Shown here: positions 8,373 through 36,275 of the stretch, in pieces | Layout: each line of letters opens with the position of its first letter | Numbering within the stretch: position 1 is the stretch's first letter | Source of the DNA: Pseudomonadota bacterium | GTDB taxonomy: Bacteria; Desulfobacterota; WTBG01; JAPLJA01 | Direction: 5' to 3' | NCBI GenBank assembly: GCA_026388815.1 | Contig: JAPLJA010000009.1 | Coordinates: 1-42,492, forward strand | Length of the DNA: 42,492 nt | Made by a program: the position numbers and the translations under genes | Notes under the pieces: model-generated | Seen by the model: only the letters and a program-made list of their open reading frames with translations | The model's database searches: none | What the model was told of the DNA's origin: nothing

Positions 8373-8419
8373 TGGTGCCGAGGCGCAGAATCGAACTGCG
8401 GACACACGGATTTTCAGTC
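8373..8419 (-). repeat. attL: 47-bp copy of the tRNA-Phe 3' half (partial tRNA remnant)
   Basis: tggtgccgaggcgcagaatcgaactgcggacacacggattttcagtc is identical to 42326-42372; sequence diverges on both sides. Confidence 0.93.
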
Positions 8420-8969: not shown

Positions 8970-10958
8970 TTGGGAAACGCTACGATGGGAGAAGCAAAAA
9001 GCGCTGGCCGCATTGTTGCCGGACGTCCTGAACCACGACGGTATACTATTTTTGCGCTCGCGCTTCAAACCTTCCGGTCCCGGGCAGAGGCTGCCTGGCG
9101 ATATGGATTTGGGATCTACCTTTCATTATTGAGACCTCTATGGCAATGTCTTATCCGCTCCGCCAGGTTCGGATTCAGCATAATCGCAAAACTCCGCAAG
9201 TTTATAGTTGCTTTTTGCAGAAAATGGGCGCACCTTAGCTCGAGAATCTTGGGGTGGACGAAATGCAGGTCTGGGTCTGTATGGGATTGGATTGCAGAGC
9301 AGTGGGCATGGGCGGTAGAAGTTAACGCAGCTCACCTCCAGCGAAGGCAACCCCAAATCTCCTCGTCTTCCTCACTGTTTGTGCTTCTAGCGATTATTGC
9401 GAGAGGGGCTAGTATAGTCTGTATCATCTGGGCAATTCGTAACTGGTATGCACCCCTTGCGACCCATCTCTATCGATTTTTTGCAGTTGTTTTGATGGGT
9501 ATTATCTGCTTACTAATCTATGATTTCTCACTCCTGCTGACTTTTGCGTTCGTGCTTCTTTTCATCCCTATTGTTGTGCTAATTGGACTATTCGGCATTA
9601 CTCTCACTGCTGTCCTCTCGACGTTCTTTGTTGCGATGCTAATGGTCCTGTTAAGCGGAATGATCGCTTTGTTGCTTGTTTGCTTGTCGGGATTTGCAGC
9701 GGGCCTGACAAGTGTTGCACTCGTAGCTGCGCTCTTGTTCTTACCAATCCTGATCGGGTGCATCGGCTTCGCTATCTATTTACTGGGTCTGATTCTACTT
9801 CAGTGTGTGGTACTTTTAGCCATCGCCATCTCGCGCCCGGGTCAATATGTGTGGGTGCTTTTGCGTAGTATTGCGTATGTCTGTCCCTCAGGTCGCTGCA
9901 GCAGTCTCCAAGTGCCAGCGCACGTATGCCCGGACTGCGGCTCAGCATACTCCAGGCTATGGCCGAGCAGATATGGCGTATTGCATCACCGATGTGAGGG
10001 TGTCAAAGATAGCCATCCTTGCCATCGATCATTATCTACCCTTGATTCGCTCGGTCGAAACCAGCTCAATCGTGTTTGCGTGAATTGTGGGGGACAATTT
10101 GTATCCAAATCATCCGGCAAGTTGCCAGTAACTGTTGTGGGTATTGCTGGTGGAACAAGTGTCGGTAAAACAACGATGATGTTGATGGCTACGGCAGAAT
10201 TGATAGCGAGCTCGCGAGATAAACAAGCCGGGATAGTTGCGGAAATCGATACAGCGGAACAACGTATTCTCTTTGATAGAGAGAGGCGGCGACTTGAGAG
10301 CGGCGTGACGGTTGCGCCAACCTCAGGGAGCGTACCCGATGCGTTTATATTGCGAGTTAAATATCAAAAATGCAGATCCTTACTCTATCTCTATGATGCT
10401 CCGGGCGAAGAATTTAGTCACATTGATACGTTCAGCCAGCATCAGTGGCTCCAACGTGCTGACGGGTTAATGTTGCTTGTAGATCCTGCTTCTCTGCCTG
10501 GCTTTATCAAGCAAGTCGGCTGCATTCCTGACCCGGAGGTGCAGGCTTCGAAGACACCGCTTACTGATGTAGTTAACTCCTGCATAGTTGCATCAGAGAA
10601 GATGATAGGCATGCAATCAGGCGAGGGTTCGTCAGTGCCCCTGGCAGTAGTCATCACTAAGGCTGATCTAGAGGCCGTAAAACAGCGAGTGGGAAATTTC
10701 TCTGTTGGTATCAACAATGGTGACTTATGTAGACATGCACTATGTGAATGGGGAGCGGGCTCTGCAATGCAAACCGTAGAGAAAAGATTTTCGAATATAA
10801 AATATTTTGCGTGTTCTGCCTTGGGCCGGACTCCAAGCAAGAAGAACACAGCCCCATTTTCTGCCTATGGTGTGTTGGATCCGTTACTTTGGATCCTGGA
10901 GGGGACCGACTCATTGAAGTCCACCAATCAGCGTGGAGTTGTAACGAAAGAGGCATGA
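8970..10958 (+). CDS. Multi-TM / zinc-ribbon / P-loop GTPase-like protein (double-GTPase-type)
   Basis: Several hydrophobic helices; cysteine pairs VCPDCG and VCVNCG; Walker A 'GGTSVGKTT' (about 10149-10175), 'YDAPGEEF' (switch II-like DxPGxE), 'DGLMLLVDP', 'VVITKADL' (TKxD). Exact start codon uncertain. Confidence 0.7.
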   Translation: MGNATMGEAKSAGRIVAGRPEPRRYTIFALALQTFRSRAEAAWRYGFGIYLSLLRPLWQCLIRSARFGFSIIAKLRKFIVAFCRKWAHLSSRILGWTKCRSGSVWDWIAEQWAWAVEVNAAHLQRRQPQISSSSSLFVLLAIIARGASIVCIIWAIRNWYAPLATHLYRFFAVVLMGIICLLIYDFSLLLTFAFVLLFIPIVVLIGLFGITLTAVLSTFFVAMLMVLLSGMIALLLVCLSGFAAGLTSVALVAALLFLPILIGCIGFAIYLLGLILLQCVVLLAIAISRPGQYVWVLLRSIAYVCPSGRCSSLQVPAHVCPDCGSAYSRLWPSRYGVLHHRCEGVKDSHPCHRSLSTLDSLGRNQLNRVCVNCGGQFVSKSSGKLPVTVVGIAGGTSVGKTTMMLMATAELIASSRDKQAGIVAEIDTAEQRILFDRERRRLESGVTVAPTSGSVPDAFILRVKYQKCRSLLYLYDAPGEEFSHIDTFSQHQWLQRADGLMLLVDPASLPGFIKQVGCIPDPEVQASKTPLTDVVNSCIVASEKMIGMQSGEGSSVPLAVVITKADLEAVKQRVGNFSVGINNGDLCRHALCEWGAGSAMQTVEKRFSNIKYFACSALGRTPSKKNTAPFSAYGVLDPLLWILEGTDSLKSTNQRGVVTKEA

Positions 10959-11055
10959 AACTTGAGGTCACGAACTAGCTGTAGGTAGATCAGCGGTTCT
11001 GAGCGGGGATTGGAGAGAATGATTGCGCTGAGTAGCCCACGCTCAGCAAGGAGGA

Positions 11056-13137
11056 ATGATGACTAACAACATTATTCTTGGTATAGATCTCGGCACTACC
11101 TTTTCCGCCATGGCATATGTGGATGATGAGGGTCGAGCGCGGGTCATTCCAAATGCCGAAGGTCAGAACACCACTCCATCAGTCGTGTTGATCGAGAATG
11201 GGAAGGTTGTAGTGGGTGAATTGGCGATGAACCAAGCCGCTACGAAATCCGATCATGTGGTTCGATGGATCAAACGCGCAATGGGGGAACCTGACTACCG
11301 GTTTCAGGGCATGACCCCTGCTGAAATATCCGCTGAGATCCTAAAAAAATTGAAGCGGGATGCTGAACATGCATTCGGACAATCCGTCACTTCTGCAGTC
11401 ATAACATGTCCAGCCTACTTCTCCTCGCCGGAGGTAGAAGCAACTAAGCTTGCCGGCGAACTGGCGGAGTTCGAGGTTCGTGAAATCGTTAAGGAACCGA
11501 CAGCAGCGGCTGTCTACTACGGGGTTGATCATCTCAGTGATGGGCAGAAGCTACTTGTGTACGATCTTGGTGGTGGTACACTTGATGTCACCATCCTGCT
11601 TCTTGAAAAAGGAATTTTCAGGCCTGTCGCCACAGCTGGCGATAGGCGTCTTGGCGGGCATGATTGGACAACAGACCTTTTGAATCGAGTTTGTAGAGAA
11701 CTCACGGAACGGTACGGCGAAGACCCTCGAGTTAGTATTCTTGTCGAGCATAGGCTTTATGAGGAATGTGAGCGCGCCAAACGGGATCTCTCACGAGTAA
11801 AGGAGACCATAATTCCCTGTGTTTATAATGGCCGGGCAGAGGAGGTCCGGGTTACTCGCGATGAGTTTGAGGAGATAACTGATTGGCGCATTAGAGAAAC
11901 AATTAGATGGACTGAGAAAGTGCTTAGTAAACCCGCCATACCAATGACATGGGTGGACATTGACGGCATATTGCTGGTGGGAGGTGCCACAAGAATGCCT
12001 CGGGTTCGGGAAGCACTTAAGGAGACCAGTGGAAAAGAGCCCATTGTCACAGGTGAAGCAGATACAATGGTGGCACTCGGGGCAGCCATTCTCGGTAAAG
12101 GGGAAGTACTGCCAAGGAACGAAAAGAGCGCCCTGGTAGCCACGGGTGAAGGTCGTGGCATTATAGCAGTCAAGTTCGATAGGACCGCATCGCGAACCCT
12201 TGGCACAAAAGTAATGGTGTGGAAGGAAGGAAAACCTGAAATAAGGAACTCGTCGATCATTGCCTATGGTACTCTGCTACCAGCTAAGGTTACGCGAGAC
12301 GATTACCAAATTTCGGTCGAGGGTCAAAGAATTTTCGATGTGCCGGTTGTGGAGTTCGATGATATCGGGCCTGAAGTGATCATAGGGACATATCGGTTTA
12401 TATGTTTACCTCAGACTCGCGCTGGAACACCGATCAGTGTGACATTCTCGTACGATGGCAGTGGCATTGCCGACGTTACAGCGATCGACCAGCGATCAAA
12501 ACGAGCCCTGTCGCGCAGCCAAATTAACTACGAACCACCAGATCTTGCCCAAGTTAAGTCTGCAAGAAAGGAACGGGTGGTAGTATTTGCTTTAGATGTC
12601 TCAGGAAGTATGTCTGGAGACAAAATTATGCGAGCAAAGGAAGCTCTCATTAGCAGTGCAAAGAGCTTGAGCGAGGCCAGCCAGGGAACCGTTAGAATAG
12701 GCGTGGTCACCTTTGGTTCCGAGGCCCGTTGTGTTTGTGAGCCAACTTTGGCTGTCGCAGATATTTGCCGGAAGGTAAAGGATATCGGTACAAGCGGTAC
12801 GACCGCTATGGACAAAGGGATAGCTACCGCAGTTAGCCTTATAAAAAACATTCCTGTCTCGGCGGTTCGTGAGATAGCACTGGTGACCGATGGAATACCT
12901 GATGACAGAGAAGCTGCTCTTGCTGCGGCAAGAGCAGCGGACTCCGATAGAATCGGGCTGTGCATTGTGGGGATTGGAAAGGACGATGTGGATGAAGACT
13001 TTCTAAGGGAAATCACAACGAGAGCATTGACTGTCGAAGGGGCTAATGAACTGGGCGACGCCTTGATGACCCTCTTGACGGAGACTTCGGATCGTACCGG
13101 TTGTCCTAATTTAATTACTTGGGGAGGACAAGAATGA
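11056..13137 (+). CDS. Hsp70 (DnaK-like) nucleotide-binding and substrate-binding-beta domain fused to a vWA domain
   Basis: Hsp70 motifs GIDLGTTFSAMAYV, VYDLGGGTLDVTIL, LVGGATRMPRV. C-terminal vWA MIDAS: FALDVSGSMSG (DxSxS), TSGTTAMDKGI, VTDGIPDD. Confidence 0.93.
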   Translation: MMTNNIILGIDLGTTFSAMAYVDDEGRARVIPNAEGQNTTPSVVLIENGKVVVGELAMNQAATKSDHVVRWIKRAMGEPDYRFQGMTPAEISAEILKKLKRDAEHAFGQSVTSAVITCPAYFSSPEVEATKLAGELAEFEVREIVKEPTAAAVYYGVDHLSDGQKLLVYDLGGGTLDVTILLLEKGIFRPVATAGDRRLGGHDWTTDLLNRVCRELTERYGEDPRVSILVEHRLYEECERAKRDLSRVKETIIPCVYNGRAEEVRVTRDEFEEITDWRIRETIRWTEKVLSKPAIPMTWVDIDGILLVGGATRMPRVREALKETSGKEPIVTGEADTMVALGAAILGKGEVLPRNEKSALVATGEGRGIIAVKFDRTASRTLGTKVMVWKEGKPEIRNSSIIAYGTLLPAKVTRDDYQISVEGQRIFDVPVVEFDDIGPEVIIGTYRFICLPQTRAGTPISVTFSYDGSGIADVTAIDQRSKRALSRSQINYEPPDLAQVKSARKERVVVFALDVSGSMSGDKIMRAKEALISSAKSLSEASQGTVRIGVVTFGSEARCVCEPTLAVADICRKVKDIGTSGTTAMDKGIATAVSLIKNIPVSAVREIALVTDGIPDDREAALAAARAADSDRIGLCIVGIGKDDVDEDFLREITTRALTVEGANELGDALMTLLTETSDRTGCPNLITWGGQE

Positions 13138-13889
13138 TAAATGAAGAGCCGACAAAAGATGGGAAGCAAATCCCAACGCAGGGCGACGCAGATAGAAGTG
13201 GTCATAGCGATCCAAAGGAAATCCTGCCTCAAGAAACTCAAACCCCCTTATTTGAAACTATGGAAGATACAGAAAGAAAGCCTGGGTCACCAGCTTCTGG
13301 GGCGAGTGATACCGCTGCATTGATGTTCAAGGAAGAGCGCTTACAAACCATCCTGGATCTTTGCCAGTGCTTTCAAAATCAATTGCACAACGCCGAGAAA
13401 GCCACCGGGGAGATGAAGCGCGGCCAAGAGTTGCTGGCCGCTAAACTACGTGAATTGTCAGATAAGCTGGATGATATTACCAGTTCTTTCAGCGAACCAC
13501 GAATTCGAGACTTATTGACGAGCCTTTTGCTATTGCATGATTTGGTGGATCAAATGGCAGGGGGAGCCGCCGACAAAAAATCGTCTATGGATCATGAACG
13601 CAATTACGGCGTCCTACTAAGCCAAATCTACCAAATCCTTGGACTTCATGGTATTCAAATCATACCTACTGATGTTCGTTTCGATGAGAATTTACACCGG
13701 GCAATACGAACGATGGAGACCGATGATCCGTCCCAGGACGGCCGGATTGTACAGGTTTTCCAGACGGGGTTTAGATCACAGCGAAGGATCTTGCGTTATG
13801 CAAATGTGGAGGTGATGACGCTGGCCCATCACGCCGGAGAGGGAGAGCAAACAAAAGATGTCTCGGACGACGTCCGGGAGACGAAATGA
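13134..13889 (+). CDS. GrpE-like nucleotide exchange factor
   Basis: Long helical region followed by 'LGLHGIQIIPTDVRFDENLHRAIRTMETDDPSQDGRIVQVFQTGFRSQRRILRYANVEV', the GrpE beta-domain pattern. ATGA overlap with the upstream Hsp70 stop (13134-13137). Confidence 0.75.
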   Translation: MINEEPTKDGKQIPTQGDADRSGHSDPKEILPQETQTPLFETMEDTERKPGSPASGASDTAALMFKEERLQTILDLCQCFQNQLHNAEKATGEMKRGQELLAAKLRELSDKLDDITSSFSEPRIRDLLTSLLLLHDLVDQMAGGAADKKSSMDHERNYGVLLSQIYQILGLHGIQIIPTDVRFDENLHRAIRTMETDDPSQDGRIVQVFQTGFRSQRRILRYANVEVMTLAHHAGEGEQTKDVSDDVRETK

Positions 13890-13952
13890 CAGTTAAGCAG
13901 GAGAGGGAGAAGAAATTGAATCGAGCCTTATGCTCGTAGAAAGGAGCTACCC

Positions 13953-15533
13953 ATGGTAAGATATGGTATTGATCTTGGAACAACCTATTCAGCGATTTCG
14001 TGTTACGATCCCAACAGGAAGTTTGTTCAAGTAGCACAACTCAATACGGCTGACGGAGGGCCGATCCTCCGATCTGTGGTGTACTATCCAGCTAATGGAA
14101 AACCGGTGGTGGGAGAGGCTGCAATGAATGCTCTCGCGCGATTCCCCGATCGTGTGATCATCGGAATTAAGCGCAGTATGGGTGATGCCTGGAAGACGCC
14201 TCCCATTGATGGCAAACAATACACACCGGCCGAAGTGTCCTCTGAGATACTGAAGGTGTTAAAGGCGGATGGCGAGGCCTTCTTTGGCCAGCCTGTCGAG
14301 GATGTTATAATTACTGTTCCTGCCTATTTCGGCTCTGACCAACGCCGCGATACCGCGGAGGCCGGACGATTGGCGGGGCTGAACGTCCTGCGTCTGTTGG
14401 AGGAGCCCTCGGCCGCAGCGCTTGCCTTTGCCATTGATCAGGTGGACATGATCGCTGGGCGCAACATCCTGGTATATGATCTGGGTGGCGGCACTTTTGA
14501 CGTAACGCTGATCCATTGTGAGCGAGAGGAGTACGAGCCCGGTGCCGTAGGTCTCAAGATTCGCACTATATGCAAGGATGGAAACCGCAAGCTTGGTGGG
14601 CTTGACTGGGATAGTGAATTAAGAAAAATTGTCGGTAACAGATGTATGGAAAAGTTCCAGTACGACCCGAGAATTGATACCGCTGATGACGCATGGCTCT
14701 ATGAACAGTGTGAGAAGAACAAACGACACCTCAGCCAACTGGAGTCCGTTTCTATCCCTGCTGACATGCGTGGCCACACGGTGGAGGTGACTCTCAGCGA
14801 GTTTCAAGAGAAGACGGCTCAACATTTGCACAAGACTCGCCTCTTGCTCGAGAAGGTACTACAAATGGCAGAGAACCCGGATGAGGAACTCAGAGGACAA
14901 TTTCCCGAAATTCTTCCGCTGAGGCGAGACCAAATCGAAATGTTGCTTTGCGGCGGGGCGACGAAAATGCCTGCGGTGGAAGCTCTCATACAGGAGATCA
15001 TGGGCCGGCCGCCTTTGAAACATGGCAATCCGGAACTGCTTGTGGCCATGGGTGCTGCTTATGCTGCTTATCTCTCGCCGCACCTGGGCGAGGAAAAGCC
15101 TCTTATCACCACTTATGATAAAGCTGGGAAGCCAATCACAGTCGATGCGCCGCCGGAGAATATCGAAATTGTCGTCCAACCGGTCGGAATAGAGGTACTC
15201 AAGGATGCCGAACATCCGGAGTTAGGGACAAAGATTGATCCGGTAATTCCTGGTGGTGCTAATGTGGGAGTAATCCACAAGGGTCATTATGCCGCAGCAT
15301 TTGACGGCGCAATGGCGGTCGAGATTGTACTGTGGGAGGGTGATGATCCCGATCCAGCAAACTGCATTCGATTGGACAGCTTCATGATGCATACAAATAA
15401 GCCTGGACGACCGAAAGGTTGGGGGATTACTGTGGAATTGAAGTACGATGATAGCGGCAAGATTGTCGGCAAGGCCATGGACGATGAGACGAAAGAGGAG
15501 ATGCAAATATCTTATGAACGGCGCAGATCTTAG
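13953..15533 (+). CDS. Second Hsp70 (DnaK-like) protein
   Basis: YGIDLGTTYSAISCY, VIITVPAYFGSDQRRDT, VYDLGGGTFDVTLI, LCGGATKMPAV; lacks a typical C-terminal lid. Confidence 0.93.
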   Translation: MVRYGIDLGTTYSAISCYDPNRKFVQVAQLNTADGGPILRSVVYYPANGKPVVGEAAMNALARFPDRVIIGIKRSMGDAWKTPPIDGKQYTPAEVSSEILKVLKADGEAFFGQPVEDVIITVPAYFGSDQRRDTAEAGRLAGLNVLRLLEEPSAAALAFAIDQVDMIAGRNILVYDLGGGTFDVTLIHCEREEYEPGAVGLKIRTICKDGNRKLGGLDWDSELRKIVGNRCMEKFQYDPRIDTADDAWLYEQCEKNKRHLSQLESVSIPADMRGHTVEVTLSEFQEKTAQHLHKTRLLLEKVLQMAENPDEELRGQFPEILPLRRDQIEMLLCGGATKMPAVEALIQEIMGRPPLKHGNPELLVAMGAAYAAYLSPHLGEEKPLITTYDKAGKPITVDAPPENIEIVVQPVGIEVLKDAEHPELGTKIDPVIPGGANVGVIHKGHYAAAFDGAMAVEIVLWEGDDPDPANCIRLDSFMMHTNKPGRPKGWGITVELKYDDSGKIVGKAMDDETKEEMQISYERRRS

Positions 15534-15601
15534 AATTACTGTCAAGTTGATAAACCCATTAAGCGAGTGGCTGATTAGTGCAAGATTAGGAGATGCTGCC
15601 T

Positions 15602-18600
15602 ATGCCTGAAACTCTAAACGAAATCCTCTCTCACTTTCATGCCCTGAAAGCGCCTGGAGGCCCAAATGGGAAAGTAAGCGGTGATTTTGACAAGGTTCAG
15701 GCGCAGATTAAGCATGTTGAGGTTATTTACGATCGCATTCGTAATCGAAGCCCCTCACCTGAGGAGCGCGCAGAAGCAGGTATATGGTTCGGCACTGTGC
15801 AGAACCTCCGAAGTCGTCAAAAGTTCCAGGAATATGTGGAGAAACTCCAGGGGATGTTCTGGGACATGGCGAAGGCAATGCCTAATGCTACGTCAGACCT
15901 CCTGATACAAGTCGCAAAAGATAAATTTGACTTCGATGACGATTTCGCCAGGAGGACTGTCGAAGAGGGCCTGCCCCGGCGGCCTGAAGACCCGTGGCGT
16001 GTGCTTAATCTGGAAGCACATGCACGCCCAAAGTGCGTGAAGCTGAACTGGCGAAGGCCAAGCAATAACTGCGACAAAATCATAGTTCAGAGGAACGAAG
16101 TTGGAACAAACACGCAACCCAAAACCATTGTTGATAATCAGTGCCGCGACGATTACCCTGATAAAGATATTGAGCCCGGCAAGCGCTATAAATATATGGT
16201 CTATTCCCTCTTCCAAGGGCTGACCAACAGGGACCCGGCGGAGATCGAGGTTCTTGTCCCGGTCGAGGTGCATGACCTACGTGCCGAGTGCAAGGTTAGC
16301 GAAGGCAAATTGCGCGTAGAACTGTCCTGGAAGCCCCCTGACTTCTGCACAGGGGTTGTGGTTTTTCGCAAAATCGGTAACCAACCGGCTGATGCGGACA
16401 CTGACATAATTAAGGAGATAGACGATGGGAAATGTGGAAGCTATTCTGACGAGGCCGTAGTAGAAGGCAAAGACCACTATTACTTGCTGGTGGCAAGGTT
16501 TGAGGTTAACGGGAGATCGGATGGTGTTTTTTCCAAGAAGGTTCCGGTTCCACAAACTCCGGGGCGTGTGGATTGGGCCAAAGCAACGTACGACGGAAAA
16601 ACAAATAGTGTCTCTTTCGAATGGAAATCCTTGGCAGAGAGTGGTCCGATCGATTATCTCGTCGTTCGAAGAGGTGGTGAATTTCTCCCCCACTCTCTTT
16701 CGGAGGGTGAATTGGTCGTCGAGACCAAAGAAACCAAATGTGTTGACAAAGGACATAAGAAAGAGCTTGAACCTGGTAGAGTCTATTCATACACTGTTTT
16801 TTGCCGCCGCCAAGGACTGCTGAGTCGGGAAGGCACACCCACCAATCAGATTATTACTTGTCGCGAGATGGATGAGAATGATCTCATATGCGAGCCTGGC
16901 GATGGAGAAATCATTCTGTCGTGGAAGCTCCCTAAGACCGCTGTGGATGTCCTGTTACAGCGAACAATCGATCCGACTGTGCCCGGTGGTCCAAACGACA
17001 AGAGCGCATTTCAGGTCCCACATTCCCCCGAAGGGGCTCGTGACACAGGTTTAACTAATAATACCGGCTATAATTATCGTGTCTGTTGTGTCTACCGATT
17101 GCCTGACGGCCAGCCTGGATATTCGGATGGTATCCTTAAAAAAGGTGTCACCCCGAAGGAGGCTCCTCCACCGATAAGAAACCTGGTGCTTACACGGGAA
17201 GGGGACGGAGTACGAATCATACATGAACCAGTTACTGATGCGAAAGTAGTCATATACCGCTGCCCCAAACCACCACCGGTACAATGCGGTGATTTGGTTA
17301 GAGCAGCGGACACTGAAAAATGGGGGGGGAGGATTGATCGTGACGGACCGACCACTGCCCTTGACAAAGCGCCAAAGTCAGATTGGCTCTATTACTTCCC
17401 TGTTACCTTTCGGGTTTCCCAGACCACTGGTACTATGGGTCAGATTCGTCGGTTGCCTATTCCTGAGGTCACAGATCTGGGCGCGTTCGTAGTGGATGCA
17501 GGAGTGCGGCTCCGGTGGCAATGGCCGGAATCATGTGAATTCGTCCGTGTAAGACGCCGTATCGGGACATGGCCTGAGGGTCTGGAGGATTCCAGCGCAA
17601 CACGTTTGGATGTTACTCATGACGAATACAACCAGAAGGGCGAAAGCGCCTTAGACCGATTGCCACCGAAAGCCGGTGAAGTTCAAGAGGTATACTATGT
17701 CGCTTACAGCAGAATAGGTAATGAATTCGCGTCCGGTGATGCCGATGGAAGTCGCTGCCATATTTCAGTCAAGCGTGTGCCCGAACTTGAGTTCGACTGG
17801 CAACCGAACCATCGCAGTGTCCTGGTACGTTGGAGGTTTGATTCAGTTCCCGACAATTTCAGCGGATTCGTGCTTACCGGGAACCCGGATCGGCCACCCT
17901 TTGATGAAAGTGACGGAAATGAACTGCTGAGGTGCGTTCCTGACTCCGACAGCAATGGAAATCTCACAACCTGGCACGAACATAGAATCGCTCTTGCCAA
18001 AGGGAAAAATGATTTGTATCATCGGGTGTTCCTTGTACAGAGAAATGATTACTCTCGAATACGAATCACTTATCCGAAACAACCGGCTCAGGTTTCCGGA
18101 AGGCGACGCCCCCGCAAACAGGTTGTTTGCCCCCACTGTTTCAAAACTTTCAGCGTGTGGCAGATACGATTCCGATACGGGAAAGATGATCCAAATTCAG
18201 GCAATAATTACCCATTGCCAAAAGCTTGGTGGGCTCGTATTAATCCCTTCTATCGCATGCAACTGAAAATGCCCACGGGTCCAGATGGACGGGCGTTCGC
18301 GGACAAACTGTGCCCCCACTGTTGCTCTGGAGCGAATTTAAGAGCGTTGCCGTACACGGCTGGCGCGCACCGAAGCCTGATAATCGGACTACTTGGCGCG
18401 TCGGGAGCAGGCAAAACCCATTATGTCGTCAGTCTCGTTCAGAGGCTGCGAAACATGGGATATGAATTGTGTGACATCGACGACGATACCATTTCACGCT
18501 TCACGAAGTTGCAAATCAGGCTGTTCAAAGATAAGACCCCGCTAACCCTAACTCAACGCGATAGGGAACCACCTCTAATCTATAGCCTGGATGGGAAAAC

Positions 18601-19186
18601 TCAGTCCTGCACCCTGGCGCTACACGACACCGCGGGCGAGCACCTAATTAAGGGGAAAGATATCCTTATGGAAACGCCGTATCTCCGTGAGGCCGACGGC
18701 CTTATCTTTCTTGTGGACCCGCTACAATGTGCCACGTTGGCTGGCGCCTTGGGCAAAAAGGCATCTGACGAACTAGCCGGGTTAGTCATGGATGCAGTGA
18801 TAAATGCCTTTCATCTTTGGGGGGTGAAGATGAAAGGCGAGAAGTTTACCGTACCATTGGCCTTGGTCTTCACGAAGGCGGATATATTGCGGGATGCAGG
18901 ACTTATCAATAATGATCTGCTGTGGCATCAACCGATTTTTAACGAAGGTGGCTACAACGTTCACCTGCACCAAGACACCGATGCCGCCTTCGGAAGGCTC
19001 GTTGCGGGAAAAGATACCAAATTATTCACGGGGGTAACCAAACATTTTCGTGATCATGCATTTTTTGGTGTTTCCGCGACGGGGTGTAACGCGGAGCAGG
19101 GACATTTTTCACGGGTTGTGCCTCATAGGGTGGAGGACCCTCTGCTCTGGTTGCTCTTTCGACTTGGGGTCATCGAGGGCAGGTGA
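15602..19186 (+). CDS. FN3-like repeat / zinc-ribbon / P-loop GTPase-like protein (double-GTPase-type)
   Basis: Repeated beta-rich modules with 'L.W..P......V.RR.G..P......G......DT.L..G..Y.Y.V'; CPHC...CPHC knuckles; Walker A GASGAGKT (18395-18418), LHDTAGEH, DGLIFLVDPLQ, LVFTKADIL. ORF track start 15593; ATG 15602 has better RBS spacing. Confidence 0.75.
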   Translation: MPETLNEILSHFHALKAPGGPNGKVSGDFDKVQAQIKHVEVIYDRIRNRSPSPEERAEAGIWFGTVQNLRSRQKFQEYVEKLQGMFWDMAKAMPNATSDLLIQVAKDKFDFDDDFARRTVEEGLPRRPEDPWRVLNLEAHARPKCVKLNWRRPSNNCDKIIVQRNEVGTNTQPKTIVDNQCRDDYPDKDIEPGKRYKYMVYSLFQGLTNRDPAEIEVLVPVEVHDLRAECKVSEGKLRVELSWKPPDFCTGVVVFRKIGNQPADADTDIIKEIDDGKCGSYSDEAVVEGKDHYYLLVARFEVNGRSDGVFSKKVPVPQTPGRVDWAKATYDGKTNSVSFEWKSLAESGPIDYLVVRRGGEFLPHSLSEGELVVETKETKCVDKGHKKELEPGRVYSYTVFCRRQGLLSREGTPTNQIITCREMDENDLICEPGDGEIILSWKLPKTAVDVLLQRTIDPTVPGGPNDKSAFQVPHSPEGARDTGLTNNTGYNYRVCCVYRLPDGQPGYSDGILKKGVTPKEAPPPIRNLVLTREGDGVRIIHEPVTDAKVVIYRCPKPPPVQCGDLVRAADTEKWGGRIDRDGPTTALDKAPKSDWLYYFPVTFRVSQTTGTMGQIRRLPIPEVTDLGAFVVDAGVRLRWQWPESCEFVRVRRRIGTWPEGLEDSSATRLDVTHDEYNQKGESALDRLPPKAGEVQEVYYVAYSRIGNEFASGDADGSRCHISVKRVPELEFDWQPNHRSVLVRWRFDSVPDNFSGFVLTGNPDRPPFDESDGNELLRCVPDSDSNGNLTTWHEHRIALAKGKNDLYHRVFLVQRNDYSRIRITYPKQPAQVSGRRRPRKQVVCPHCFKTFSVWQIRFRYGKDDPNSGNNYPLPKAWWARINPFYRMQLKMPTGPDGRAFADKLCPHCCSGANLRALPYTAGAHRSLIIGLLGASGAGKTHYVVSLVQRLRNMGYELCDIDDDTISRFTKLQIRLFKDKTPLTLTQRDREPPLIYSLDGKTQSCTLALHDTAGEHLIKGKDILMETPYLREADGLIFLVDPLQCATLAGALGKKASDELAGLVMDAVINAFHLWGVKMKGEKFTVPLALVFTKADILRDAGLINNDLLWHQPIFNEGGYNVHLHQDTDAAFGRLVAGKDTKLFTGVTKHFRDHAFFGVSATGCNAEQGHFSRVVPHRVEDPLLWLLFRLGVIEGR

Positions 19187-19230
19187 GTGGATAATTACAG
19201 GGAGTGTTTCTTATCAAGGAGGAGTTCATA

Positions 19231-28890: not shown

Positions 28891-31019
28891 GAACAACTTT
28901 ATTATTCCTGACCATTGCTACGATACTAATACTGAATTTGTTTCATGCATCTGATCGCACTTTTGGGTCAGATGCACAAACCGAATTGATCGCATTTTCC
29001 TTGCGGGAAGCTCAGCGGACCGCCAAAGAGCATCCAGGAGATGAAAATCTTAAGAGGGTCGGAGGTATAGCCGAGATCGTCGGATTCATCATAGACAATA
29101 ACACGAAAGATGTCATTATACTTGGTAAGAGTTCCGATGTTTTACCCTCCTTCTGTCTTGATGATCTCGTTTTCCTTCTACGTTGCGCTCAGATAGGAGG
29201 ACTTTCTGGTCCAGGTGTTTCCTTGGAACCGAAAGGAGATATTTCGAGTGGGCAACTTCAGGTAGTACTCTTCGGGGGTTCAGATCGTACATCTATTGGG
29301 AGCGTCTCCTTCGATGCTGATTACTTAATGAAAAAGATCGCACTTGATCTTGAGCCGAGTGGAGTGAGCAAATTGGAGTCCTACGCGGAACGAACAAAGA
29401 AGAAGTTTTTTGAAGAAAAGGTGGAGACCTGGAATATACTTTCCCGATTTTGGTTTACCCCAACCTATGCTCCCGTGACAACAAGCAAGGCAGAGGACAT
29501 ATTCCTTTTGCGGGAGATAAAAGTCGGCGTTCTCGTACAGACCCTATCTGCCGAAATCAACGGTAGGCCGGCGCCTCTAGGTTTTAAGGATGATCCTGCA
29601 GAAAAGTATGCCATAGAGTTTATGAATCTCTACGATAAAATGGCTGAGAAACATCGAGAGTTTGCTGAACTGGCTCGATTCATGGGGGGAATGAAGTTGA
29701 TGAATGTGCTTCTTACAAAGGTCCAACCTGAGAGTCTGGACTTTTGGATAAATAGATACAGTCCCACCGAAGGGAAAATTCCTTCAGAGGTTCCACTCCT
29801 ACGAAAAACCTTCATGGACGCTCGCCGTCAGTTATCTATAATCGGAGGCGTGAGAATGACAGGACTGACTCAGCGTCTCCGCAGAGGGGAGGTTGCCGCC
29901 ATCCGTGATGCGATTTTGATAGCACGACCATCTGAAAGAAGCCTCACCTGGACAGTAGTATTTGATAAGGATTGGCGGATAACTATCCCCTCAGCGAGCA
30001 AGGAGGATCAAGAGATCGCTAATCTTTTTGCTAACGGACTGATCCAACATGAAAAGGGTGATGATGCAGGGGCGATTCAATCTTTCGATCAAGTGCTTAA
30101 TACCTATCCCAGCGTTGTAGAAGCGCGGTTTCTGAAAGCCGTGTGCGAGAGGGATTTATTGATTAAGAAAGGTAAGGTTGATGAAGTACTAGGGCCTCTG
30201 AATTCCCTAACCCAATTAGCAGGGGAGAATCCGCAGTTTCTTGAAATACGCTATGAGCTTGGATCAACACTCCGCGTCCTTGGGAGGAACGATCAGGCTA
30301 TTGAAGAACTGGAGAAGATTATTAGTATTCGACAGGACTTTGCACCTGCGCATCATGCTCTTGGCCTCGCCTATTGGACAAAAGGGGATAACGCGTCCGC
30401 TACCAAGCACCTTCAGGAGTATCTACGCATTGAAAGTGGACAAAATAATAAGTGGGTTTTGGAAGCCAAGCGCCTGATAGAGGAAATAGCCTCCGGGAAA
30501 AAGCAAACCCTGGGTAACACTGTTGAACTTGAGACCTTCTCGGATGTGAAGCACAACTTTCAATGTCAATATCCAAAAGAGTGGAAGCTCCTAAGAGAAA
30601 ATGAGATAGGGAAGCTTCTTCCTAGTATGGGAGATGCTAAAAACATTGTAGTAGCCTTCGTATACCCTTCGAAGACAGATAGCAATGTAAACATTCAGGT
30701 TGTGCCCATAGAGGCGGATGAGTTGTCTGACAAGGATATTACTGATGCAATACCAGCACTGGATGCTGCCTATAAAGAGAGATTTAGACGGTTTCAAAAG
30801 ATAGAGGCAGGACAGGTAAATATTGGCGGCGTCAGGGGTATCCGTTATTTATTTACATGTGAAAGAGCGGGAGTGATGATCGAACAATGTGTGATCACGC
30901 TGGTCAAGAGTCGCAAAGCGTACACGTTAACGTTTACAGCCCAGGAGCAAGATTTTGCTAATTTCTGGGAAACATGCTTCAATCGTACCCTTACATCGTT
31001 TCAGATTGGTGGAAGTTGA
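28887..31019 (+). CDS. Exported TPR-repeat protein with N-terminal domain shared with the 31100 gene (possibly DUF1598-related)
   Basis: Signal sequence; 'DVIILGKSSDVLPSFCLDDLVFLLRC...GPGVSLEP' and 'RFWFTPTY...REIKVGVLVQT'; TPRs 'FLEIRYELGSTLRVLGRNDQAIEELEKIISIRQDFAPAHHALGLAYWTKGDNASATKHLQEYL'. ATGA overlap with the upstream gene. Confidence 0.7.
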   Translation: MRTTLLFLTIATILILNLFHASDRTFGSDAQTELIAFSLREAQRTAKEHPGDENLKRVGGIAEIVGFIIDNNTKDVIILGKSSDVLPSFCLDDLVFLLRCAQIGGLSGPGVSLEPKGDISSGQLQVVLFGGSDRTSIGSVSFDADYLMKKIALDLEPSGVSKLESYAERTKKKFFEEKVETWNILSRFWFTPTYAPVTTSKAEDIFLLREIKVGVLVQTLSAEINGRPAPLGFKDDPAEKYAIEFMNLYDKMAEKHREFAELARFMGGMKLMNVLLTKVQPESLDFWINRYSPTEGKIPSEVPLLRKTFMDARRQLSIIGGVRMTGLTQRLRRGEVAAIRDAILIARPSERSLTWTVVFDKDWRITIPSASKEDQEIANLFANGLIQHEKGDDAGAIQSFDQVLNTYPSVVEARFLKAVCERDLLIKKGKVDEVLGPLNSLTQLAGENPQFLEIRYELGSTLRVLGRNDQAIEELEKIISIRQDFAPAHHALGLAYWTKGDNASATKHLQEYLRIESGQNNKWVLEAKRLIEEIASGKKQTLGNTVELETFSDVKHNFQCQYPKEWKLLRENEIGKLLPSMGDAKNIVVAFVYPSKTDSNVNIQVVPIEADELSDKDITDAIPALDAAYKERFRRFQKIEAGQVNIGGVRGIRYLFTCERAGVMIEQCVITLVKSRKAYTLTFTAQEQDFANFWETCFNRTLTSFQIGGS

Positions 31020-31099: not shown

Positions 31100-34000
31100 A
31101 TGTCAAATGGAATACTCGGAACTTTAATTAATAGTCAAGTTGCAGGCGCTACTGCTGGACAAGCTATTGGCCCAGCCGCCGCGGCTTCTCAGGCTTTATC
31201 TTCACTGGGAGAGGGCTTACAACTAATTGCCTCAGGCATCAAAGGGCTCCTCGGAAGTATTACTTCTTTGTTACCTACAGGTTCGGGTGAAGGAGACAGC
31301 AACGGCGGTTCAAGTGGAGATGCCGGGGTTAGTGGAGGAGGTGATGGGTCAAGTTCGGGCGGAGGAGACGGAAATCCCCTCGTTGGCCCTCAATTATCAG
31401 GCTCGGAAGCAGGGCAAGGACTTGGACCAGCAGTTGGGCTGGGTGAAAGCTTACCTGACTTTGATCTCCCTTCTACAGGACCTCAAGGTCCAATTGGTTC
31501 ATCAGTTGTACCGCTTCCAAATGTCGGTGGAATTCTTTTCGAGAACTGCGCTGCAGTGCTTACGGAAATCGGAGAAATCACAGGAGCCTACTGGGACTCC
31601 CAAACGGGGTCACTTGTTGTTATCGGAAAAGATGCTCAACGAGGCAGTATGATTCCCATGGCCTTACCTTACTTAGACCGAGACCATTTGCTTGTTGCCC
31701 TTCGTGCATATTTGGCAGGAAATCCAATCGGTGTGAGTATTGATCCCCCTGTGGAATACCGCAACAGCATAAGGCAAGGGGTTACCCCTCCCGATGGAAC
31801 GGACATGCTGGTTAGCTACCTCGGAGATACTGAGAGTACGCTTTTTGGTGCAATCATGTTTGAAGCTGATAGGCTCTTAAAATGCCTTGATAAAGGGGTT
31901 AACAACGAAACCAGAAAGCCAGTTCGGGCAACTGTTCCGGGTTTTAAGACGCTTCTAGAGATGATTAAACCTGACGATGGACGACCGGAGAATGTCTGGC
32001 ACCGCTTTTGGTTTGTCATTGACAAAGTGGAGCTAAAACACGATCCTGCAACCGGAACTGTAATCTTTGGTGATGTACGATTAAAGGTTCTCACTGAGAC
32101 CGAACTCCACGGAGAGACATCAAAAAAGTCTGTTGACCCTATCGATGAGGCTTTCACCAAACATCTTACTGACTACTATGATGAGTACGCAAAGGACTTC
32201 CCTGTCTTGGCCAGATTAAAGGAGCTGGCAAAAGTTGCTGCCGTTGCTAAGTTTCTCTGCAATTCAGGGATACCTTTGGACCTGGGAAGCATTTTTCAAG
32301 CAGATCCCGTTCATGTTGACACCCTTTCCACCACTCCCGGCATTTCGGTCACCAGCCCGAATGTGAAGATTGAATACAAGGGGAATGTGACACGTACCCA
32401 AACCGTATCCTTGTTCGGCGGCGTTGACATGGAGCCGGATCTAAAAATTCTCCCTGATGACGGAATGGCAAGGCAATTGCAACGCGTTGCAGAGTCGGCA
32501 CGCCCAAGTGGGAGTGTCTCCTCTTGGACATTTCGGAAAAATGGGCAAAGGGCACGGGCTCTGGCTCAAAAGGTCGGCAAGGCACATGCCCCATTTCAAA
32601 GAATCTGTGACGACCATGATTTCTCATTAAGCGGTAGCAACGGCGTGCTCCGATTGAGAAGGGTTTACAATTCGTTTTCTCTGCTAAAGGGTGACTTCGG
32701 CCCTGGTTGGACCTGGTGGGTTCCATTTTCGATTACAGTGGTCCCTCAAAGTCACAAGCGACCTGAAGTACTCACCCACGAGGAAGCAGAAAAATTATCT
32801 CGGGTGAAGGTATATATTTTACATGATCATACCTCTGGGGAATCGAGTCTTTATCGGCAGATTAATTCTCAACCATCTGGCAACGGACAAATGTTCTGTC
32901 GTGTTACAAGCCAGGCGGTAAAAAAAGGCGGCGTAACTTTTCAGTACGACCCCTCGGATTATTTACAGGGACAAAGTGACTGCTTGGTGCTCAGACGAGA
33001 GAACCGGCAGTACTGCTTTGATCCCCTAGGGAATCTCATGGAAGTTCGCAAAGAAAATCGTATCCTTATCCGATACCACCGAGAGGACGGATGTATTGTG
33101 CTGATCCAAGATGACACCGGCCATAGTTACAACATCAAGTACAGTGAACAAAGGCCCCAACGGATCGTGGGTGTCACATGCAGCGATGGGAAACAAATAC
33201 ACTATTCATATGACGAATTGGGTTATCTCACAACTTTCGGGAATGGTAAAGGCGGGATTGAAGGCTATGCTTATGATACGAAAGGGCGCCTAACAGAAAT
33301 CAGGAATCGCGCAGGCGTAGTGCTTCAACGAAATGTTTATGATGACTTTGATAATTTAGTGACTAAGAACTCTGACGTTCTTATTGACAAATCGGGTCAT
33401 AGAGTTCGGCGATCCTTTAATAGAGGGCGAGTGGTTTCATCGAATGATGAATCTAGTAACGTAGCTCTATTTAATTATGGAAATAACGGGGAACTCTTAA
33501 GTGTAGAAATCAAGGAAAACTCAGGACGAACATCTCGCCTTAGTTATGATCTGAAGGGAAGACTGAGTAGCTTTCAAGATTCATCGGGTCTGTACACATA
33601 CCTTTACTATGACCCGTCAAATAAGGTGAACCGAGTACTAAAACCTGGAGGTAAGGCATATTCTCTCCAGCGAGATGAGGAAGGTCGGCTTACTCTCATA
33701 ACAGATCAAAATGGCCGATCGTGGAAAGCAGAATACGATGCTTCTGGTAACTTAAAGAATACCTTAGCGCCAAATGGGGATCTGTGGAATTTTAGACATG
33801 AGAGAACGAATCTCGTTAAAGTAAGTGGACCGCCAGGTGAAGTGAGAGTTACAACACGAAGAAATGCCATTGCATTTCGAACGCATCCTGTAAGCGGCTT
33901 ATGGCAGGAAAGAGTTTATGAACGAGTGCTTGGGAAAAAGGATCGGGAGAGCGATCAGCGATTGGTTAAATGCCATACAAAGGGAACAAAGCCTGTGAAG

Positions 34001-34114
34001 CTACACTATGACCAGATAGGTAATATTCAGACTATTCAAAACGAAGTTGGCACCATTAATTTCCATATTGACGAAAAAGAGCTTACGGTTACTGTGGCAT
34101 TTCAAGGCATATAA
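31100..34114 (+). CDS. Hybrid RHS/YD-repeat protein with Gly/Ser-rich N-terminus and domain shared with the 28887 gene
   Basis: 'SGEGDSNGGSSGDAGVSGGGDGSSSGGGDG'; 'GSLVVIGKDAQRGSMIPMALPYLDRDHLLVALRAYLAGNPIGVSIDP'; RHS core-like 'LSGSNGVLRLRRVYNSFSLLKGDFGPGWTWWV...YCFDPLGNLMEVRKENRILIRYHR...YAYDTKGRLTEIRNRAGVVLQRNVYD'. Confidence 0.8.
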   Translation: MSNGILGTLINSQVAGATAGQAIGPAAAASQALSSLGEGLQLIASGIKGLLGSITSLLPTGSGEGDSNGGSSGDAGVSGGGDGSSSGGGDGNPLVGPQLSGSEAGQGLGPAVGLGESLPDFDLPSTGPQGPIGSSVVPLPNVGGILFENCAAVLTEIGEITGAYWDSQTGSLVVIGKDAQRGSMIPMALPYLDRDHLLVALRAYLAGNPIGVSIDPPVEYRNSIRQGVTPPDGTDMLVSYLGDTESTLFGAIMFEADRLLKCLDKGVNNETRKPVRATVPGFKTLLEMIKPDDGRPENVWHRFWFVIDKVELKHDPATGTVIFGDVRLKVLTETELHGETSKKSVDPIDEAFTKHLTDYYDEYAKDFPVLARLKELAKVAAVAKFLCNSGIPLDLGSIFQADPVHVDTLSTTPGISVTSPNVKIEYKGNVTRTQTVSLFGGVDMEPDLKILPDDGMARQLQRVAESARPSGSVSSWTFRKNGQRARALAQKVGKAHAPFQRICDDHDFSLSGSNGVLRLRRVYNSFSLLKGDFGPGWTWWVPFSITVVPQSHKRPEVLTHEEAEKLSRVKVYILHDHTSGESSLYRQINSQPSGNGQMFCRVTSQAVKKGGVTFQYDPSDYLQGQSDCLVLRRENRQYCFDPLGNLMEVRKENRILIRYHREDGCIVLIQDDTGHSYNIKYSEQRPQRIVGVTCSDGKQIHYSYDELGYLTTFGNGKGGIEGYAYDTKGRLTEIRNRAGVVLQRNVYDDFDNLVTKNSDVLIDKSGHRVRRSFNRGRVVSSNDESSNVALFNYGNNGELLSVEIKENSGRTSRLSYDLKGRLSSFQDSSGLYTYLYYDPSNKVNRVLKPGGKAYSLQRDEEGRLTLITDQNGRSWKAEYDASGNLKNTLAPNGDLWNFRHERTNLVKVSGPPGEVRVTTRRNAIAFRTHPVSGLWQERVYERVLGKKDRESDQRLVKCHTKGTKPVKLHYDQIGNIQTIQNEVGTINFHIDEKELTVTVAFQGI

Positions 34115-34191: not shown

Positions 34192-35016
34192 ATGAGCTTC
34201 TTTTGGTTCAGACGTCGCAGATATAGGTCTATGCTGTTCAGTGAGGACGCAGCAACGAGACTGAATGCAGCAAGGAAACTCGGTGATCTCGGTGATCCTG
34301 GGGATGTTGGAACTCTTTATTGGTTTCTAAAAAGGGAGAGGATTTCAGAGGTACGGGAGGCATTGTCAGAGGGGTTGAGAAGGATAGGTACTCAATCTTT
34401 CGAACCCCTTCTTCAGATTCTATCTAATACGAGGAAAAATAAGAGAATTAGCCCCGGCGAAGCCAGCAGGATTCTCGCCGGGGCTGCCTATATACTTGGG
34501 ATCGTCCGTGATGATCGCGCTCTCGCTCTGCTTATTGAAGCCTTGAAGGACTATGACTCACAGGTTTGCGAGGCTGCGTCACAAGCCCTCGGCAACTTAG
34601 GGAATCGACAGGCTGCAGAGGTACTCGTGGCTAGGGTGCAAGATAAATCTTGGTTTAGATTGCTACCCCTTATACCGTCATTCGGTCTATCCCTTGTCGG
34701 AACAGAAACTAAAGAGTACATTCGAAGCGTCATGGACGGTGAGGTGTCAGTGCGGGTCGCGGCGGTTAAGGCCCTGGAAAAGCTTGGCGACGGGCGAGGT
34801 TTTGAAGTTCTTGTCCGCGCCCTTAAAACAGAAGGACATGGGCAACAAGACGACATTGAACGGATATTAGCTGCGAAAGCGTTAGGACTGCTAGGTGACG
34901 AGCGAGCTAGAGAACCACTCGCTCAGAACATGGAAGGAAGGTGCAGCAGGGCTCTGCGGGAGGCTATCGCAGAAGCAATTGCTAGGCTAGATTATTCCCA
35001 CACAGGTGACACGTAA
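34192..35016 (+). CDS. HEAT / PBS-lyase-like repeat protein
   Basis: Units such as 'DDRALALLIEALKDYDSQVCEAASQALGNLGNRQAAEVL', 'RVAAVKALEKLGDGRGFEVLVRALK'. Confidence 0.85.
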   Translation: MSFFWFRRRRYRSMLFSEDAATRLNAARKLGDLGDPGDVGTLYWFLKRERISEVREALSEGLRRIGTQSFEPLLQILSNTRKNKRISPGEASRILAGAAYILGIVRDDRALALLIEALKDYDSQVCEAASQALGNLGNRQAAEVLVARVQDKSWFRLLPLIPSFGLSLVGTETKEYIRSVMDGEVSVRVAAVKALEKLGDGRGFEVLVRALKTEGHGQQDDIERILAAKALGLLGDERAREPLAQNMEGRCSRALREAIAEAIARLDYSHTGDT

Positions 35017-35036: not shown

Positions 35037-36275
35037 ATGAACCAGTACAAAAAAACCTTCTCTAACCGCCATGTCCTTCTCCCCGTTATACATGTTATCT
35101 CCAAAGACCAAGCGCTAAAAAATGCGAGTATTGCCAGAGAGGCGGGTTGCGAGGGCATCTTCCTTATTAATCATGGCATGCCCTTCACAAACTTACTGGA
35201 GATACATCATGCTGTATTTACTGAATTCTCTGATTGGTGGATAGGGGTTAACTGTCTTGACCTCACCCCTAAAGATGTTTTTCATAAGATCACTAATGAG
35301 GTAGCTGGAGTGTGGGTCGATAATGCGATGATTGATGAACAGCGCGAGAATCAGCCCGAAGCGGAGAGCATTCAATCTGCACGAATAGAAAGCGGTTGGA
35401 AAGGACTTTATTTCGGGGGTGTGGCGTTCAAATATCAGCGGCCAGTCCAGGATTTGGATCGAGCCGCACGACTCGCTGTAAAATATATGGACGTAGTAAC
35501 CACGAGCGGTCCAGGCACGGGACAGGCAGCTTTTCGTGGAAAAATCTTGGCCATGAAAAAGGTATTGGGAGATTTTCCGCTCGCCATCGCCAGTGGTATC
35601 AGGCCCGCCAATATCTATGATTACATGGATGTTGCGGATTGTTTCTTAGTAGCAACTGGCATTAGTATTAGTTTCACCGAGCTTGACTCAAATCTTTTAA
35701 AAAGATTAGTTAGAGCAATCAGGTCTTATTCTGATAATGCGTTCCCTATCACTGGCCGAAATATGCCTCAAAAAGGCAAACGTATAAATTCAGTTTGTTT
35801 CGTGTGTGAATGGAATGAGGGAAGAAGTATACATCTTGAACTTAGCACAAGGCGTAAACTCATGGTGAAAGGGGGTCACATAAGTATATGTTCTGCGGGG
35901 TTCAGGCAAGGCAGGAACATTAATCCCCTCCGGAAAGAATTCCTATTAAAGCGTGGCGTTCCCCTCGAAGAGATAGAAGATCATAAACCAACTATTTTTG
36001 GAAAGGAGCACACACAAGCAGACCTGATCCTTGTTGCTGAACTGCCAATGAAGGCAAGGCTTTTAGCTGCTTGGCCTGAATTGCAGGGCAAGGTTATGAC
36101 AGTAAGAGGATTTATTCAAGGCTTTTCGCCTGAAAATGAACCACTTTCTTTGGCAGATGCACATATAGAGGACGCAGGTGGACATAGCAATGAAGAAAAG
36201 ATTGCTCTTTATATAGAGCTTGAAAAGTTGGCAGAACAAATCGCATCTAGAATACTTGAACTTAATCTGCACTAA
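35037..36275 (+). CDS. TIM-barrel (BtpA-like) domain fused to low-molecular-weight phosphatase-like domain
   Basis: N-terminus 'VLLPVIHVISKDQALKNASIAREAGCEGIFLIN', 'LAIASGIRPANIYDYMDVADCFLVATGI'; C-terminus 'VCFVCEWNEGRSIHLE' (CX5R-S; Cys at 35805) and 'DHKPTIFGKEHTQADLILVAE'. Confidence 0.6.
   Translation: MNQYKKTFSNRHVLLPVIHVISKDQALKNASIAREAGCEGIFLINHGMPFTNLLEIHHAVFTEFSDWWIGVNCLDLTPKDVFHKITNEVAGVWVDNAMIDEQRENQPEAESIQSARIESGWKGLYFGGVAFKYQRPVQDLDRAARLAVKYMDVVTTSGPGTGQAAFRGKILAMKKVLGDFPLAIASGIRPANIYDYMDVADCFLVATGISISFTELDSNLLKRLVRAIRSYSDNAFPITGRNMPQKGKRINSVCFVCEWNEGRSIHLELSTRRKLMVKGGHISICSAGFRQGRNINPLRKEFLLKRGVPLEEIEDHKPTIFGKEHTQADLILVAELPMKARLLAAWPELQGKVMTVRGFIQGFSPENEPLSLADAHIEDAGGHSNEEKIALYIELEKLAEQIASRILELNLH

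What the first reader, a model, noticed from the sequence alone, without database searches (positions are those of the whole stretch)
15602..19186. Very large FN3-repeat protein ending in zinc knuckles and a GTPase domain
About 850 residues of beta-rich FN3-like modules precede a CPHC...CPHC region and a GTPase-like domain. No signal peptide is visible, so the FN3 array is probably cytoplasmic, where it could act as a scaffold or ligand-sensing arm. FN3 arrays are more often extracellular in bacteria.
Basis: partly seen in the sequence, partly recalled or inferred. Interest (0 to 1): 0.75.

Follow-up and report, generated by a model that had tools for sequence, protein, structure and literature searches.

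The report
FN3 sensor arm fused to GTPase
This large bacterial protein is an intracellular GTPase switch joined to a seven-module FN3 arm; it belongs to a predicted but experimentally untested anti-invader system on an apparent mobile genomic island, and it is unusual because arm and switch are separate genes in every relative examined.

Summary
ORF 15593-19186 (likely start 15602) encodes an N-terminal helical region, seven FN3-like modules (modelled; matched to fibronectin structures), two CPHC pairs, and a GTPase domain that passes Pfam's cut-off for DO-GTPase2. No signal peptide or TM segment is predicted. It is not an orphan. It sits in a one-strand run of genes: TM-GTPase, Hsp70-vWA, GrpE, Hsp70, this gene, and two GAP1-N2 genes. 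That matches the GAP1-N2/HSP70-GrpE "GTPase-centric conflict system" predicted by Kaur et al. 2020 (PMC7159879). In 77 relatives the FN3 protein and the zinc-ribbon GTPase are separate neighbouring genes; here they are one. The window copy also keeps only 4 of the 8 zinc-ribbon cysteines. The two GAP1 genes share about 90% identical DNA over their first 885 bp, then carry unrelated C-termini (TM+OmpA versus long soluble). A 47-bp direct repeat, one copy being the 3' end of tRNA-Phe, brackets 34 kb around the system: probably a genomic island, no integrase found. FN3 regions evolve about twice as fast as the GTPase, but dN/dS stays below 1. Most likely role: cytosolic sensor-switch. Function is unproven. 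Verdict: new variant of a known kind.

The parts
8373..8419 (.). left copy of 47-bp direct repeat, identical to the 3' part of tRNA-Phe (putative attachment-site remnant, island end)
   Evidence: only two copies in the genome
8970..10958 (+). membrane DO-GTPase2: N-terminal TM region, zinc-ribbon cysteines, GTPase
   Evidence: PF19993 38.4 bits over cut-off; TM segments; groups with relatives' TM-GTPases, 100/100
11056..13137 (+). Hsp70 ATPase-like domain fused to C-terminal vWA domain
   Evidence: PF00012 2e-90, PF00092 4e-17; the homologous 693-aa protein in Metabacillus (L040) aligns over residues 8-655 of 693
13119..13889 (+). GrpE-like nucleotide exchange factor (ATG at about 13134 is a likelier start)
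   Evidence: PF01025 2e-16
13953..15533 (+). second Hsp70-like protein
   Evidence: PF00012 3e-66
15593..19186 (+). the finding: FN3-array / zinc-ribbon / DO-GTPase2 fusion protein (likely start 15602)
15608..15964 (+). N-terminal helical region, residues 6-124; no Pfam match and no second copy in the genome; no clear J domain
15992..18097 (+). seven FN3-like modules, residues about 134-835 (boundaries approximate); the last five align with the separate FN3 proteins of relatives
18128..18139 (+). CPHC pair 1 (first pair of zinc ribbon 1)
18311..18322 (+). CPHC pair 2 (last pair of zinc ribbon 2); the four cysteines between the pairs that relatives have are lost
18371..19183 (+). DO-GTPase2 domain: P-loop GASGAGKT 18395-18418, DTAGE 18626-18640, TKAD 18872-18883
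19231..21087 (+). GAP1-N2 protein A: GAP1-N2, GAP1-M (weak), TM, OmpA/MotB-like peptidoglycan-binding C-terminus
   Evidence: distant ZorB/MotB matches
21209..24298 (+). GAP1-N2 protein B: first 885 bp 90% identical to protein A, then an unrelated soluble C-terminus
42326..42401 (-). tRNA-Phe(GAA); its 3' 47 bp (42326-42372) is the right copy of the direct repeat

Best explanation
The protein is the core switch of a GAP1-N2-type DO-GTPase system of the Hsp70/GrpE theme. The FN3 sensor protein and the zinc-ribbon GTPase, normally two adjacent genes, have fused into one cytosolic polypeptide. Proposed mechanism: the FN3 array (with the helical head) binds an intracellular ligand, perhaps an invader protein or a misassembled host complex. 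Hsp70/GrpE/vWA chaperones load or reset it. Ligand binding changes the nucleotide state of the attached GTPase and its pairing with the membrane DO-GTPase. The GTPase pair then engages GAP1, whose C-terminus carries the output: one GAP1 is membrane- and wall-directed (TM+OmpA), the other soluble. Shown here: gene content, domains, fusion, intact GTPase motifs, lack of export signal, direct repeats at a tRNA gene. Inferred: ligand sensing, GTPase pairing, GAP1 engagement, mobility and a defence role.
For: DO-GTPase2 and GAP1-N2 matches over the curated cut-offs, beside Hsp70, Hsp70-vWA and GrpE. The published HSP70/GrpE theme lists an FNIII protein, zinc-ribbon GTPase, TM GTPase, GAP1-N2, HSP70 and GrpE. 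The same gene set recurs in relatives, e.g. Metabacillus L040: Hsp70, Hsp70-vWA, FN3, ZnR-GTPase, GAP1, TM-GTPase. FN3 and GTPase are separate neighbouring genes in 77 of 77 loci where both were found. The window's two GTPases fall with the soluble and the TM relatives respectively (100/100). Seven FN3 modules modelled and matched to solved FN3 arrays. Ras-like GTPase fold with P-loop, DTAGE and TKAD. Sporadic distribution: convincing homologue in 1 of about 395 other genomes of the phylum, which with the tRNA-Phe direct repeat suggests lateral transfer.
Against: No experiment on any member of this family was found in the papers searched; the conflict role is a prediction from one comparative-genomics study. 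No integrase was found and the empty site could not be shown. The system is absent from the PADLOC hits except for distant ZorB/MotB similarity of one GAP1 tail. FN3 dN/dS is well below 1. The reported DnaJ or TPR fusion on the FN3 protein is not seen here. Half the zinc-ribbon cysteines are lost, so zinc binding is uncertain.
Confidence: 0.65

Rival explanations
1. The system monitors envelope or cell-wall state rather than invaders. The TM-GTPase and the OmpA-tailed GAP1 touch membrane and peptidoglycan, and the FN3-GTPase relays the signal inside.
For: TM segments in one GTPase and one GAP1; OmpA/MotB-like tail that can bind peptidoglycan. Kaur et al. also place GAP1-N2 systems near the membrane.
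Against: Sporadic presence and the probable island context suit an accessory conflict module better than housekeeping stress sensing. The second GAP1 has no TM segment.
Confidence: 0.2
2. The FN3 arm is mainly a substrate-presenting co-chaperone for the linked Hsp70s, taking the place of a J protein and driving assembly or disassembly of a GAP1 complex; it senses nothing by itself.
For: Two Hsp70s and GrpE are encoded directly upstream; relatives' FN3 proteins are reported to carry DnaJ or TPR domains, and the window's helical head occupies the same N-terminal position.
Against: No J-domain match and no HPD motif in the window protein; the fast-evolving FN3 region fits a ligand-facing surface.
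Confidence: 0.2
3. The fusion is an assembly or sequencing artefact and the native organism has two genes.
For: In relatives the two genes abut or overlap by a few bases, so one lost stop or small indel would fuse them. The genome is a draft of 316 contigs.
Against: The junction reads cleanly in one frame, and the GTPase part has no obvious ribosome-binding site or start of its own there. Raw reads could not be checked.
Confidence: 0.07
4. It is an exported FN3 adhesin or surface protein with an odd C-terminus.
For: Bacterial FN3 arrays are often extracellular (general knowledge).
Against: No signal peptide or TM segment; 26 cysteines, intact GTPase motifs, operon with cytosolic chaperones.
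Confidence: 0.02

Closest known systems
GAP1-N2-type GTPase-centric conflict system, HSP70/GrpE theme (Kaur, Burroughs, Iyer, Aravind 2020, eLife e52696, PMC7159879)
   Same: DO-GTPase pair (one TM, one soluble with zinc ribbon), GAP1-N2, FN3-repeat component, HSP70, GrpE, second HSP70-domain protein; gene set and order recognisably conserved
   Different: FN3 component fused to the soluble GTPase; 7 FN3 modules against about 5; no J or TPR domain found; four of eight zinc cysteines lost; two GAP1 genes with swapped C-termini; lies in a phylum where the system is very rare
Zorya ZorB / MotB (PG-binding stator-like proteins)
   Same: The C-terminal part of GAP1a (TM, coiled region, OmpA) resembles ZorB/MotB tails (E 2e-8 and 2e-18)
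   Different: No ZorA/MotA partner seen; the N-terminus is GAP1-N2; likely a shared peptidoglycan-anchoring module only
Ras/Rab/Arf small GTPases and fibronectin-type FN3 arrays (PDB)
   Same: Fold of the two halves
   Different: Sequence identity about 8-16%; no solved protein combining them was found

Membership tests
DO-GTPase2 (PF19993) | Profile match over the curated cut-off | tested here: met
   33.6 bits against a cut-off of 27, residues 930-1098
DO-GTPase2 (PF19993) | TRAFAC-type GTPase motifs with a glutamate in the Walker B motif | tested here: met
   GASGAGKT, DTAGE and TKAD present and aligned with relatives; Ras-like fold
DO-GTPase2 (PF19993) | One to two N-terminal zinc ribbons (reported for 60% of members) | tested here: inconclusive
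   Outer Cys pairs kept; the inner four cysteines, kept by 13-14 of the aligned relatives, are lost
GAP1-N2 GTPase-centric system | GAP1 gene with GAP1-N2 domain downstream of a DO-GTPase gene | tested here: met
   Two such genes, 69.1 and 59.0 bits against a cut-off of 24
GAP1-N2 GTPase-centric system | FNIII-repeat component | tested here: met
   Present, but fused to the GTPase
GAP1-N2 system, HSP70/GrpE theme | HSP70 and GrpE genes in the neighbourhood | tested here: met
   11056-13137, 13119-13889, 13953-15533
GAP1-N2 system, HSP70/GrpE theme | FN3 protein typically fused to a DnaJ domain or TPR repeats | tested here: not met
   No Pfam match in residues 1-138; helical head of unknown type. 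Reported as typical, not obligatory
GAP1-N2 GTPase-centric system | Acts in conflict with invaders | not testable with these tools
   Predicted only (PMC7159879); no experimental paper found
FN3 domain (PF00041) | Seven-stranded FN3 sandwich in each module | tested here: met
   Module 3 over the Pfam cut-off; all seven by model and Foldseek
tRNA-integrated genomic island | Direct repeat of a tRNA 3' end at both ends | tested here: met
   47 bp, 8373-8419 and 42326-42372
tRNA-integrated genomic island | Integrase gene at one end | tested here: not met
   None among the window proteins scanned near either end

The most novel reading that the evidence does not exclude
A single-polypeptide immune-type receptor: an intracellular FN3 recognition arm is covalently coupled to its GTPase switch, and the one switch serves two GAP1 adaptors with a common docking head but different outputs (wall-anchored and soluble), made by recent duplication with C-terminal swapping and carried as an island cassette.
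Probability: 0.2. Interest if true: 0.7.

Novelty: new variant of a known kind. Interest (0 to 1): 0.45.

Why it matters
The DO-GTPase/GAP1 systems are predicted defence machines with no experimental account found here. A natural fusion of the FN3 component to the GTPase is gene-fusion ('Rosetta stone') evidence that these two parts act together, and it offers one tractable protein for testing whether ligand binding to an FN3 arm controls a bacterial GTPase. The twin GAP1 genes point to GAP1's C-terminus as the exchangeable output.

Tried and rejected
Alignment A2 (whole protein with FN3 and GTPase rows mixed) misaligned FN3 rows onto the GTPase and was dropped; A3 and A4 replaced it. FN3 hits L009 and L010 from the first relatives search are unrelated lipoproteins beside lysA. 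Long GTPase ORFs in GC-rich actinobacteria (e.g. L043, L113) looked like fusions but are overlapping out-of-frame extensions: no ORF matches both profiles. Plasmids and phages gave no hits; viral contigs none. No second copy of the N-terminal helical region in the genome. The empty island site could not be shown: the flanking gene is not next to a tRNA in ten related genomes. The organism could not be named with these tools. Gene-wide positive selection on FN3 was looked for and not found.

Full report
What is there. ORF 15593-19186 (+) is one open frame of 1197 codons. Residue numbers here count from 15593. The protein has a helical head (residues 6-124, low confidence), seven beta-sandwich modules (138-826), two CPHC pairs (846-849, 907-910) and a GTPase domain. 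Pfam recognises one FN3 module above its cut-off and DO-GTPase2. The array model matches fibronectin and other FN3 arrays in the PDB; overall pTM is 0.41, as expected for a flexible chain of modules, so relative module positions are not reliable. The GTPase model (pTM 0.83) matches Ras/Rab/Arf proteins. There is no hydrophobic leader or TM segment. Modules share 15-31% identity with one another, so this is an old array, not a recent repeat expansion.

Surroundings. All genes from 8970 to 24298 run on the + strand with short gaps: TM-containing DO-GTPase2, Hsp70-vWA, GrpE, Hsp70, the finding, GAP1-N2 A (TM and OmpA tail) and GAP1-N2 B. This set is the HSP70/GrpE theme of the GAP1-N2 GTPase-centric systems described by Kaur et al. 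2020 (PMC7159879). They report an FNIII-repeat component, a zinc-ribbon GTPase, a second GTPase with TM helices, GAP1, HSP70 and GrpE, and suggest that the FNIII domains sense the invader. I found no experimental work on these systems in the library searched.

Relatives. A genome scan with a GTPase alignment returned 80 loci, nearly all Actinomycetota, with some Bacillota and a Chloroflexota contig. In 77 of them an FN3 protein gene lies directly upstream of the zinc-ribbon GTPase gene; in none does one ORF match both profiles. BLAST aligns the separate FN3 proteins of Bacillota with window residues 337-825 at 20-22% identity, E down to 2e-16. The profile used included the window sequence, so the BLAST result is the independent evidence. 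In Metabacillus (L040) the order is Hsp70, Hsp70-vWA, FN3, ZnR-GTPase, GAP1, TM-GTPase. In a tree the window's fused GTPase falls with the soluble relatives and its TM-GTPase with the TM relatives (100/100); both window branches are long, so finer placement is unsafe. In the window's own phylum a full-strength homologue was found in 1 of about 395 other genomes (G021, contig cut inside the gene), plus one marginal hit.

What differs. First, the FN3-GTPase fusion. It was not seen in the 77 loci, nor mentioned in the passages of the paper's main text that I read; its supplementary data and the 91 scan hits not kept were not examined, so I do not claim uniqueness. Second, the zinc ribbons: relatives have eight cysteines in four pairs; the window keeps the first and last pairs and lacks the four in between, which 13-14 of the aligned relatives keep. 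The two remaining pairs could form one zinc site, which is inference. Third, twin GAP1 genes: the first 885 bp from the start codon are 90% identical (31 synonymous and 16 non-synonymous codon differences in the first 230 codons), then the C-termini are unrelated. This is a recent duplication or conversion with exchanged tails, in line with the paper's report of variable domains on GAP1 C-termini. Fourth, no J domain or TPR was found on the FN3 part, although the paper calls these typical.

Mobility. A perfect 47-bp direct repeat lies at 8373-8419 and 42326-42372. The right copy is the 3' part of tRNA-Phe(GAA), and these are the only two copies in the genome. The 34 kb between them hold the whole system. 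This is the usual sign of a tRNA-integrated island. No integrase was found and no empty site could be shown, so current mobility is unproven.

Arms race. At matched Hsp70 identity the FN3 region is more diverged than the GTPase (77% against 88% identity in the closest bin). Pairwise dN/dS in 16 close pairs is 0.25-0.48 for FN3 and 0.08-0.26 for the GTPase. That is faster evolution under weaker constraint or local selection; it does not by itself show an arms race. These pairs are actinobacterial relatives, not the window's own lineage.

How it likely works. Shown: domain order, intact nucleotide-binding motifs, cytosolic character, chaperone and GAP1 partners, fusion. Inferred: the FN3 arm recognises something inside the cell, the chaperones load or reset it, the GTPase changes state with its membrane partner, and GAP1 heads pass the signal to a wall-directed and a soluble tail. 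The main alternatives are an envelope-state monitor and a co-chaperone role for the arm. I judge membership in the DO-GTPase/GAP1-N2 system as close to certain (about 0.95), the sensor-switch mechanism as likely (about 0.65) and a defence role as about 0.55.

Verdict. What is new is the fused form and its setting.

Noticed in passing
8373-8419 and 42326-42372: 47-bp direct repeat, the right copy being the 3' end of tRNA-Phe; brackets a probable 34-kb genomic island without a recognisable integrase.
   Followed up: partly
19231-20114 and 21209-22092: Two GAP1-N2 genes share a 90% identical 885-bp start and then carry unrelated C-termini, as if effector tails were swapped.
   Followed up: partly
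24377-26561: Three short consecutive ORFs with RHS/YD repeats directly after the system, resembling each other; possibly broken remains of a larger RHS gene.
   Followed up: no
28887-31019 and 31100-34114: A TPR protein and an RHS/YD protein share a related segment (residues 61-265 and 157-373, 25% identity); the TPR protein has a weak match to DUF1598 (0.0006).
   Followed up: no
36751-38424: Long HEAT/PBS-lyase repeat protein (557 aa, 11 or more repeats) inside the probable island; a second HEAT protein lies at 34192-35016.
   Followed up: no
35037-36275: Protein with a weak BtpA-like match and a C-terminal low-molecular-weight phosphatase domain: an unusual pairing.
   Followed up: no
L103:6003-8921: In Streptomyces coryli the ZnR-GTPase frame is extended upstream by about 580 residues unrelated to FN3: possibly another N-terminal fusion, start not verified.
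   Followed up: no
L008: In G021 (same phylum) a DO-GTPase2 carries a C-terminal TM and repeat region, with a MORN-like repeat gene next to it; the contig ends inside the GTPase.
   Followed up: no
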